Origin: Thermoplasmata archaeon
Lineage (GTDB): Archaea; Thermoplasmatota; Thermoplasmata; Thermoplasmatales; Thermoplasmataceae
Direction: 5' to 3'
DNA: 63,195 bases
NCBI GenBank assembly: GCA_021806295.1
Contig: JAJZXS010000025.1
Coordinates: 1 to 63,195 of the forward strand
The position numbers and the translations under genes were made by a program. Below, piece after piece: positions 33,164 to 34,658 of this stretch. The notes beneath the pieces were generated by a model. That model saw only the letters and a program-made list of their open reading frames with translations. It was not told where the DNA came from and made no database searches. The stretch's first letter is position 1. Every line of letters begins with the position of its first letter.

Positions 33164-33664
33164 TTACTGTTTTTTCTTGAATAAATGCCACCACTTTTTG
33201 GTATTATCCATAGGTTTCCTATCACTTTCCGTGCTTTTCTGATTAACAGGTTCCAGCAGTACATCCTTTCCGACGAAGATAAAGCCTATTGTTATGCTGT
33301 CAATATTGTCATGAATCCATTTATCACTTCTATAATCCCTGAATTTATCGTTGGAAACTATCAGGCATTTCTTTTCCCTGGCATAATCCAGTATAAACAT
33401 ATCTGCCCTTATGCCTGATGGTGCAAGAATTATGGATTTATTCTCAATCATCCTGTTAAGTTTTTCCTTCTCATCAATTGTATAACGTATATTTGCATCA
33501 CATATTGTAATTATTTCAGATGCTTTATATTCTTTAAGTTTATTTATTACTGACAGGATATTTTCCAGTACGGCCTTTTTCTTCCCTGATTTGCTCATAC
33601 CGTACATTGCAACGTTGCTTCCATCTACAATAACGATTGATCCAGAAATTTTGTTTTGATACAT
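33164..33664 (-). CDS. NYN/Zc3h12a-like PIN-fold ribonuclease
   Basis: A 166-residue protein with the PIN-like fold of the Zc3h12a (Regnase-type) ribonucleases. Acidic metal-binding residues are seen in IVIVDGSNVAM (Asp14), TICDANIRYTI (Asp56), SGIRADMFILDYA (Asp88) and IVSNDKFRDY (Asp106, Asp110). These match the usual order of catalytic aspartates. A basic C-terminal tail (KKWWHLFKKKQ) could bind RNA. Members are single-strand RNases, but the target is unknown. No antitoxin-like small gene precedes it, so a toxin-antitoxin pair is not supported. It lies between the ABC operon and the ferritin-like gene, all on the reverse strand. Confidence 0.82.
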   Translation of the reverse strand: MYQNKISGSIVIVDGSNVAMYGMSKSGKKKAVLENILSVINKLKEYKASEIITICDANIRYTIDEKEKLNRMIENKSIILAPSGIRADMFILDYAREKKCLIVSNDKFRDYRSDKWIHDNIDSITIGFIFVGKDVLLEPVNQKSTESDRKPMDNTKKWWHLFKKKQ

Positions 33665-33711: not shown

Positions 33712-33996
33712 TTAATCTCCCAATTCTTTTAATTCCTTTTTGGAGAACAGTATTTCCTTAAGTTCCCTGTCAAGCTCAGGGTCATTTCTTCTCAGATATT
33801 CAAGCAGAAGCGAGAAATGCTCCTTCTCATCATCCCTGTTATGCTTTATTACATCCTTCAATACAGAATCCTTTGTAGCATCCAGCCTCTCGTCATAGAA
33901 CATTATTGCCTGCATTTCCTCTATTAAGGACTGCCTGGCCCTTGACATATCCTTTGTTTTTTCATCTAAACTGTTTTCTGTTTCATACATTGGCAT
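33712..33996 (-). CDS. Encapsulated-ferritin-like (EncFtn) protein
   Basis: A 94-residue protein whose whole length matches encapsulated ferritins such as the Rhodospirillum protein: EEMQAIMFYDERLDA, then HNRDDEKEHFSLLLEYLRRNDPE. The residues that form the ferroxidase site at the dimer interface are present: Glu27, Glu57 and His60. The family needs an encapsulin shell to store iron, and bacterial members carry a C-terminal targeting peptide. Here the C-terminus (FSKKELKELGD) shows no such peptide and no encapsulin gene lies in the window. It probably oxidises ferrous iron, fitting an iron-rich acidic habitat. The message seems leaderless, with TATA about 25 bases upstream and an operator-like repeat further up. 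Confidence 0.88.
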   Translation of the reverse strand: MPMYETENSLDEKTKDMSRARQSLIEEMQAIMFYDERLDATKDSVLKDVIKHNRDDEKEHFSLLLEYLRRNDPELDRELKEILFSKKELKELGD

Positions 33997-34011
33997 GAAG
34001 AAAGAAGTGTG

Positions 34012-34024
34012 AATTTATTTATAA
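34012..34024 (-). promoter_or_regulatory. Probable TATA box of the EncFtn-like gene
   Basis: On the reverse strand TTTATAAATAAAT is centred about 24 bases before the ATG at 33996, with no Shine-Dalgarno sequence between. This is the usual spacing for a leaderless archaeal message. Confidence 0.5.
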
Positions 34025-34057
34025 ACATTCTTATTAACTTCTAAAATAAATACTTGT

Positions 34058-34092
34058 CTAGTCTTATTTAGACTAATTTGGCTTAGACTAAT
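34058..34092. promoter_or_regulatory. Triple TTAG-N-CTAA-like operator between EncFtn and thioesterase genes
   Basis: Two exact copies of TTAGACTAAT stand at 34068-34077 and 34083-34092, 15 bases apart. Each contains TTAG-A-CTAA, a dyad. A third, imperfect copy on the other strand (CTAGTCTTA) lies at 34058-34066. The set is about 35-70 bases upstream of the EncFtn TATA box and on the side toward the thioesterase gene. The pattern recalls binding sites of DtxR/IdeR-type iron regulators, which also favour TTAG and CTAA halves, but the spacing of the halves here is not the standard one. Regulation by iron is inference. Confidence 0.45.
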
Positions 34093-34202
34093 ATTATTTA
34101 TTTAAAGCTGGATAAACCATTAACTATTCCGGCAGGCATAAGGGATTGATTTTAAATAAATACTTACCTGATAATTTATTAACACAAAATGGATACAGGC
34201 GT

Positions 34203-34658
34203 ATGGCAACCCGCATTGAACAGATTATGGGCCTTTCAAAGGATCTTGATAAACTTAACAGGGCATTTGAAGAAAAAGAAAACTTATTTAGTTATATGGG
34301 ATTAAAAATTACCAGAATAGAAAGGGGATTTTGTCAGATGGAATTACCGTATAGTGAGAAAATCACCCGGGCCGGTAAGGTTCTGCATGGAGGGATGATA
34401 ATGAGCGCTATTGATTATGCAGGAGGTATCACCACCATGACGGTTAATGATGGCATTGATCAGGTCACACAGGAAGTTAAGATCAATTTCCTTGCACCCA
34501 TGGCGAATGGCCCCTTCAGGGTAGAGGGAAAAACTGTCAAGGCAGGTAGAACTGCAGTTATAATTGAAATAAAATTTTTTGATACTGAGGGGAAACTTGG
34601 AGTTATGGCACTGGGTACATGGTATATAATAAGGGACAGGGTAATCAAGAAATCATAA
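34203..34658 (+). CDS. PaaI-type hotdog-fold acyl-CoA thioesterase
   Basis: A 152-residue hotdog-fold thioesterase of the PaaI/YdiI type. The core reads MGLKITRIERGFCQMELPY, VLHGGMIMSAIDYAGG with the HGG helix start, and VTQEVKINFLAPM followed by VKAGRTAVIIEI. The acidic residue in AIDYAGG occupies the usual catalytic place. Substrate is not deducible; phenylacetyl-type or medium-chain acyl-CoA are usual. Upstream TTG at 34146 would extend the frame, but the ATG at 34203 is preferred: TTTAAATAAATA lies about 45 bases upstream, and the region before it does not align with the family. It shares its upstream DNA with the divergent EncFtn gene. Confidence 0.82.
   Translation: MATRIEQIMGLSKDLDKLNRAFEEKENLFSYMGLKITRIERGFCQMELPYSEKITRAGKVLHGGMIMSAIDYAGGITTMTVNDGIDQVTQEVKINFLAPMANGPFRVEGKTVKAGRTAVIIEIKFFDTEGKLGVMALGTWYIIRDRVIKKS

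What the first reader, a model, noticed from the sequence alone, without database searches (positions are those of the whole stretch)
33712..34203. Encapsulated-ferritin-like gene without encapsulin
The 94-residue EncFtn-like protein keeps the ferroxidase residues (Glu27, Glu57, His60) but has no visible targeting peptide, and no encapsulin is encoded in the window. Known members need a shell for iron storage. An archaeal acidophile living with high ferrous iron may use it in a different way, perhaps with a shell encoded elsewhere or alone as a ferroxidase.
Basis: partly seen in the sequence, partly recalled or inferred. Interest (0 to 1): 0.6.

Follow-up and report, generated by a model that had tools for sequence, protein, structure and literature searches.

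The report
Archaeal encapsulated-type ferritin without shell
An iron-oxidising protein normally locked inside a virus-like protein shell is present here, in an acid-loving iron-oxidising archaeon, with no shell gene found and with a near-identical second copy next to a peroxide-destroying enzyme, suggesting it defends the cell against iron and peroxide rather than storing iron.

Summary
The gene is real: 33712-33996 (-), 94 aa, Pfam EncFtn-like (104.5 bits), with the ferroxidase residues Glu27, Glu57 and His60. It has no targeting peptide. A search of the whole 96%-complete Ferroplasma genome finds no Pfam family-1 encapsulin and no classical ferritin. This holds across the clade: among 101 relatives, 44 have EncFtn-like proteins, 8 have encapsulin, and none has both. 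One more distant genome with a canonical EncFtn-encapsulin pair shows that the search works.

It lies 1 nt downstream of a peroxiredoxin gene. That gene pair recurs in 10 species examined, and in two of them a catalase-peroxidase gene follows. A separate shell-less group also sits beside peroxiredoxin. The entry-site glutamate whose removal speeds Rru-EncFtn is glutamine here.

Best explanation: a free ferroxidase that removes Fe(II), and perhaps H2O2, in partnership with peroxiredoxin. Export of Fe(III) by a rubrerythrin-VIT1 fusion is inferred. The closest known kind is the 's-FLP' class (N. europaea NE0167, PDB 3k6c). Whether s-FLPs need a shell is an open question in print, and this clade makes it testable. 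New variant of a known kind.

The parts
33712..33996 (-). EncFtn-like gene, 94 aa, short form without targeting peptide (s-FLP type), one of two copies in the genome
34018..34025 (-). TATA-like box TTTATAAA, -29 to -22 from the ATG, consistent with a leaderless archaeal transcript; also present upstream of the copies in L080, L035 and L040
   Evidence: read by eye from the sequence; function inferred
34068..34091 (-). Two TTAGTCTAA palindromes 15 bp apart, possible operator. They are two of only five TTAGNCTAA sites in the genome, but the exact form is not kept in the nearest species (L080)
   Evidence: role unknown

Best explanation
The protein is a shell-less EncFtn-type diiron ferroxidase, probably a ring-shaped decamer like NE0167 and Rru EncFtn, working free in the cytosol. 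It oxidises surplus Fe(II), with O2 and possibly H2O2, and so limits Fenton chemistry; peroxiredoxin removes H2O2 alongside it. It does not store a mineral core. The iron is either returned to the pool or, more speculatively, exported, with the rubrerythrin-VIT1 membrane fusion in the same genome as candidate exporter. Shown here: family, conserved metal ligands, predicted fold, absence of Pfam family-1 encapsulin and of PF00210 ferritin from the assembly, and the peroxiredoxin operon of the second copy. Inferred: ferroxidase activity, oligomer, oxidant, partnership and export.
For: Family and fold. All 49 distinct s-FLP-type sequences, fragments included, keep Glu62 and His65; Glu32 and Tyr39 are kept in the 48 that reach them. 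No encapsulin: 0 of 1 own genome; 0 of 44 EncFtn-positive relatives; 0 of 9 Micrarchaeota, other-archaeal and Acidiplasma genomes reached through loci. In the phylum sample 79 of 81 EncFtn-positive genomes lack it, and the canonical adjacent pair is found in G180. No PF00210 ferritin in 10 of 10 Ferroplasma genomes, while 14 of 14 controls ring. Peroxiredoxin ends 0-6 nt before the EncFtn start in 10 of 50 s-FLP-type copies examined: 7 Ferroplasma species, 2 of genus g19 and Acidiplasma (Pfam AhpC-TSA and 1-cysPrx_C). KatG follows in two of these. Hemerythrin is next upstream in 5 of 5 g6 copies. The separate f5 group has peroxiredoxin upstream within 100 nt in 7 of 14. Removing Rru Glu34 raises ferroxidase activity (PMC11202242 passage); the equivalent is Gln in 27 of 48 s-FLP-type sequences, including every Ferroplasma one. 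The rubrerythrin-VIT1 fusion: rubrerythrin hits of 330-331-aa frames in 9 of 10 Ferroplasma, with both domains confirmed in the own genome.
Against: No activity, oligomer or expression data. 35 of 50 s-FLP-type copies, the window copy among them, have neither peroxiredoxin nor hemerythrin as the next gene upstream (a few have too little flank to tell). Nine of 30 s-FLP genomes also have a PF00210 protein, seven of them weak hits. Rru EncFtn alone aggregated and gave precipitates on iron addition (PMC5012862 passages), which argues against a free ferroxidase under those conditions. The rubrerythrin-VIT1 gene is about 11.5 kb from the operon copy here but about 217 kb away in G009, so linkage is not conserved.
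Confidence: 0.55

Rival explanations
1. Iron buffer or chaperone: the ring binds Fe(II)/Fe(III) reversibly and supplies iron to the iron-rich Ferroplasma proteome, rather than detoxifying it.
For: No PF00210 ferritin in 10 of 10 Ferroplasma genomes. EncFtn decamers bound up to 48 irons in solution (PMC5012862 passage). The title of Ferrer 2007 in the reference list of PMC8773360 calls the F. acidiphilum machinery iron-protein-dominated.
Against: The neighbours are peroxide enzymes, not iron-cofactor assembly genes. No acceptor identified.
Confidence: 0.17
2. Rubrerythrin-like peroxidase: the diiron site reduces H2O2 with electrons from the cell, Fe(II) not being the true substrate.
For: Weak Pfam rubrerythrin similarity (15.3 bits, below cut-off) and structural similarity to rubrerythrin-family chains (Z 8.4-8.8). 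Peroxiredoxin and KatG neighbours. The preferred oxidant of EncFtn is stated as unknown (PMC7762939 passage).
Against: No rubredoxin-type electron donor domain in the 94 aa. Characterised EncFtn act as ferroxidases (PMC5012862 abstract and passages). The VIA match to rubrerythrin is within the range of unrelated helical rows.
Confidence: 0.13
3. Cargo of an unrecognised shell: an HK97-type or other compartment too diverged for PF04454, or lost in assembly gaps, docks the conserved C-terminal tail.
For: The tail LFSxKxxxxLGD is highly conserved (LGD end in 39 of 49), and a review marks the matching segment of bacterial s-FLPs as a putative, uncharacterised targeting peptide (PMC11202242 Table 2). 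G000 is 96% complete. The SrpI-like search rang in no control and so cannot exclude family 2.
Against: Single-contig relatives G004, G006 and G009 also lack PF04454. No shell gene was seen among the annotated neighbours. The consensus targeting motif is absent in 49 of 49 s-FLP-type and 16 of 16 f5-type sequences but present in the G180 control. At least five of the eight encapsulin-bearing Thermoplasmatales genomes have fused EncFtn-encapsulins instead.
Confidence: 0.1
4. Relic of a former encapsulin system, kept by chance or with no present role.
For: No shell.
Against: Purifying selection: the two own copies differ at 10 of 282 nt but only 1 of 94 residues. Invariant ligands across genera. 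Two copies in most Ferroplasma.
Confidence: 0.03

Closest known systems
s-FLP class, Nitrosomonas europaea NE0167 (PDB 3k6c)
   Same: About 95 aa, same ferroxidase ligands, no targeting peptide, best sequence and Foldseek match
   Different: Bacterial. Keeps Glu34; has Leu for Phe33 and a different C-terminal tail. Falls outside the archaeal clade in the tree
FLP-TP encapsulated ferritins, R. rubrum Rru_A0973 (5da5) and H. ochraceum (5n5f)
   Same: Same fold and ferroxidase centre
   Different: Those have a long C-terminal tail with a targeting peptide and an encapsulin (PMC11202242, PMC5012862); here neither. Entry-site Glu34 is Gln, outer-site Glu61 is Asp
Fusion-FLP of Pyrococcus furiosus (5n5e / 2e0z)
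   Same: Archaeal EncFtn fold
   Different: Fused to the shell protein. Eight of the 101 genomes have encapsulin hits, at least five of them fusions by EncFtn-profile hits in the same frame, and none of the eight has a match in the EncFtn searches
Dps / Dps-like mini-ferritins
   Same: Proposed role, iron and peroxide detoxification. PMC8773360 (passage) found no widespread Dps in acidophilic Euryarchaeota and suggested replacement by another protein
   Different: Half-ferritin EncFtn fold with no closed cage

Membership tests
EncFtn-like (PF22277) | Profile score over the curated cut-off | tested here: met
   104.5 bits against 27
EncFtn-like (PF22277) | Two long antiparallel helices plus short C-terminal helix; Glu32, Glu62, His65 (and Tyr39) equivalents | tested here: met
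   Predicted helices 12-40, 44-71, 73-84; residues
EncFtn-like (PF22277) | Decamer and Fe(II) oxidation | not testable with these tools
   Needs purified protein
Encapsulin-associated ferritin (TIGR04535) | Score over the curated cut-off | tested here: not met
   91.1 bits against 125
Encapsulated ferritin (FLP-TP) cargo | C-terminal targeting peptide | tested here: not met
   Consensus absent in 49 of 49, present in G180 control
Encapsulated ferritin (FLP-TP) cargo | Encapsulin (family 1, PF04454) in the genome | tested here: not met
   0 of 1 own, 0 of 10 in the genus, single-contig genomes included
Family 2 encapsulin partner (SrpI-like, PF19307) | Shell gene present | tested here: inconclusive
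   0 of 21, but no control rang
s-FLP class | About 95 aa, no long disordered tail, no targeting peptide, EncFtn ferroxidase centre | tested here: met
   definition from PMC11202242
Classical ferritin / Dps (PF00210) | Four-helix profile match | tested here: not met
   PF00210 is not among the families listed for this protein at E up to 1, and nothing in the genome matches it at E up to 0.001

The most novel reading that the evidence does not exclude
Iron detoxification by oxidation and export instead of storage: an ungated (Glu34 to Gln) EncFtn ring, co-expressed with peroxiredoxin, oxidises cytosolic Fe(II) with H2O2 and hands Fe(III) to the rubrerythrin-VIT1 membrane fusion, replacing Dps and ferritin in iron-oxidising acidophilic archaea. 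The conserved LGD tail would be the partner-docking element, in place of an encapsulin targeting peptide.
Probability: 0.2. Interest if true: 0.75.

Novelty: new variant of a known kind. Interest (0 to 1): 0.5.

Why it matters
Published work holds that EncFtn must be housed in a shell to store iron (PMC5012862) and leaves open whether short EncFtns are encapsulated (PMC11202242) and which oxidant EncFtn prefers (PMC7762939). Here a conserved archaeal clade has the enzyme and no detectable family-1 shell, in a genus known for iron oxidation (recalled), with peroxiredoxin in the same operon. It is a natural case in which the shell-free function can be measured, and a candidate for the unnamed protein that replaces Dps in these archaea (PMC8773360).

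Tried and rejected
Iron-box idea for the TTAGNCTAA pair: only five sites in the genome, two here, but the other three lie near genes with no evident iron link (lipoate ligase-like, aromatic biosynthesis, sugar isomerase/kinase, judged by eye) and the nearest species keeps only TTAG halves. Not claimed as an iron box.

Function from the window neighbours (NYN RNase, thioesterase, ABC transporter): conserved position, no iron logic found.

Exclusion statistics: no overlap of 44 and 8 among 101 genomes has P 0.008 by hypergeometric test, or 0.05 for the 30 s-FLP genomes alone. The genomes are related, so this is descriptive only.

Tree of a short alignment of the roughly 85-residue domain: archaeal s-FLP clade of 41 with support 0.89; four incomplete sequences (three edge fragments and one cut copy) and five encapsulin fusions were dropped before it. 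Too short to date the loss of a shell.

Middling VIA-align hits to rubrerythrin and unrelated helical proteins were not used as evidence of kinship.

Full report
OBSERVATION. The window contains a 94-aa ORF at 33712-33996 on the minus strand. It matches Pfam EncFtn-like at 104.5 bits, NCBIfam TIGR04535 at 91.1 bits, below its cut-off of 125, and solved EncFtns, best NE0167 of N. europaea, 3k6c. Glu27, Glu57, His60 and Tyr34 align with Rru Glu32, Glu62, His65 and Tyr39. The model (mean pLDDT 85.5) has helices 12-40, 44-71 and 73-84. Foldseek ranks 3k6c first, and VIA-align gives Z 12.0-12.1 to 5n5f, 5da5 and 3k6c, against 9.3 or less for unrelated rows.

WHOLE GENOME. The window is contig C19 of a 1.47-Mb, 96%-complete genome. 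The genus contains F. acidarmanus Fer1: G009:C1 has the length of NC_021592.1 (1,935,211) and its matches lie at the same coordinates. PF04454 encapsulin is absent and PF00210 ferritin is absent, while all 14 controls ring for ferritin. There is a second copy at C8:2938-3219, 93 of 94 residues and 272 of 282 nt identical.

CLADE. Among 101 genomes, EncFtn-like proteins occur in 44 and encapsulin in 8, with no genome in both lists. PF00210 ferritin occurs in 48, but in 0 of 10 Ferroplasma; 9 of the 30 genomes with the short form (29, plus G001, which holds only a 20-residue fragment at a contig edge) do have a PF00210 match, seven of them at 33 bits or less. In a phylum sample of 389 genomes, 81 have EncFtn-like proteins and 4 have encapsulin; both occur in two. 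In one of these, G180, the genes are adjacent and the EncFtn has a tail carrying LRIRSL, which fits the targeting consensus; this is the positive control. In the other, G319, the hits are on separate contigs and the EncFtn hit is weak. Nine genomes reached through loci (Micrarchaeota, Marsarchaeota, unclassified archaea, Acidiplasma) have no encapsulin. Five of the eight encapsulin loci of the 101 hit the EncFtn profile in the same frame, that is, they are Pyrococcus-like fusions. The SrpI-like family gave nothing in 21 genomes, but no control rang.

CONTEXT. The second copy lies 1 nt after a peroxiredoxin gene (AhpC-TSA and 1-cysPrx_C), which is divergent from an Lrp/AsnC regulator. The peroxiredoxin-EncFtn pair is found in 10 of the 50 s-FLP-type copies examined: seven Ferroplasma species, two genomes of g19, and Acidiplasma aeolicum. 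KatG follows in G006 and G005. In genus g6 a hemerythrin gene precedes EncFtn in 5 of 5 copies. The other 35 copies, the window copy among them, have neither as next gene; several have too little flank to judge. Distances run from frame ends and are approximate. A second shell-less group (family f5, fusion-FLP-like residues, 28-35% identical) has peroxiredoxin within 100 nt upstream in 7 of 14 copies, and in L093 a rubrerythrin follows. By recall of its genome length f5 includes Aciduliprofundum; this was not verified. The window copy stands alone with a conserved TATA-like box, in a position shared with Ferroplasma relatives and partly with Acidiplasma.

RESIDUES. In 49 distinct s-FLP-type sequences, fragments included, the Glu34 equivalent is Gln in 27, Glu in 21 and missing in one; Glu61 is Asp in 45; the C-terminus is LGD in 39. 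Mutating Rru Glu31 or Glu34 to Ala raises ferroxidase activity, and Glu34 is described as highly conserved (PMC11202242 passages). The Ferroplasma protein thus carries a natural change at a site read as a gate. The same review lists the matching tail of bacterial s-FLPs as a putative, uncharacterised targeting peptide; strong conservation of the tail in genomes without a detected shell speaks for another role.

MECHANISM. Best supported is a free ferroxidase that lowers Fe(II), and perhaps H2O2, beside peroxiredoxin. A store is unlikely, since the EncFtn ring has no closed cavity and Rru EncFtn needs its shell to store iron (PMC5012862 abstract and passages). A possible outlet is the rubrerythrin-VIT1 fusion: 9 of 10 Ferroplasma genomes have the rubrerythrin hit in a 330-331-aa frame, and both domains were confirmed in the own genome. 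MbfA, an iron exporter in B. japonicum that works in concert with bacterioferritin (PMC4902296 abstract and section headings), is the model; that MbfA has this same domain pair is recalled. The gene lies about 11.5 kb from the operon copy here but is not linked in G009. Activity, assembly, oxidant and export are all inferred.

LITERATURE. Searches were made in the open-licence PMC library. Of the two papers naming both encapsulin and Ferroplasma (listing only), titles and abstract openings do not concern this protein; their full texts were not read. I found no paper on this archaeal family in these searches, but subscription journals are mostly not held. PMC8346489 (passages), PMC6934571 (passages) and PMC12524180 (passage) were looked at and did not settle the question. 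PMC8773360 (passages) reports no widespread Dps in acidophilic Euryarchaeota and suggests replacement by another protein; it may have counted these proteins among small truncated rubrerythrin-domain proteins, which cannot be told from the passages read.

VERDICT. Real, conserved, shell-less as far as Pfam family-1 encapsulins go, and tied by operon of its second copy to peroxide defence. A new variant of a known kind, with an open question it makes testable.

Noticed in passing
window 33712-33996 and L079:2938-3219: The two copies in one genome (272 of 282 nt) are more alike than either is to its counterpart in G006 (258 and 261 of 282), as gene conversion would give.
   Followed up: partly
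L041, L044, L054, L055: Micrarchaeota MAG contigs (one of 771 kb) carry the same family at 69-86% identity, suggesting gene exchange between Thermoplasmatales and DPANN archaea; misbinning not excluded for the short contigs.
   Followed up: partly
window 34068-34091: Two TTAGTCTAA palindromes 15 bp apart upstream of the gene; only five TTAGNCTAA sites in the genome.
   Followed up: partly
L138:2102-3091 (-): Rubrerythrin-VIT1 fusion (329 aa), candidate iron exporter, on the same contig as the second copy.
   Followed up: partly
L092, L093, L122-L132: A second kind of EncFtn-like protein, resembling the FLP half of the Pyrococcus fusion but standing alone, without PF04454 encapsulin, beside peroxiredoxin, OsmC or rubrerythrin genes in some loci.
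   Followed up: partly
window 33164-33664 (-): Zc3h12a-like NYN ribonuclease domain protein (70 bits) directly downstream of the gene, with weaker similarity to protein-only RNase P.
   Followed up: no
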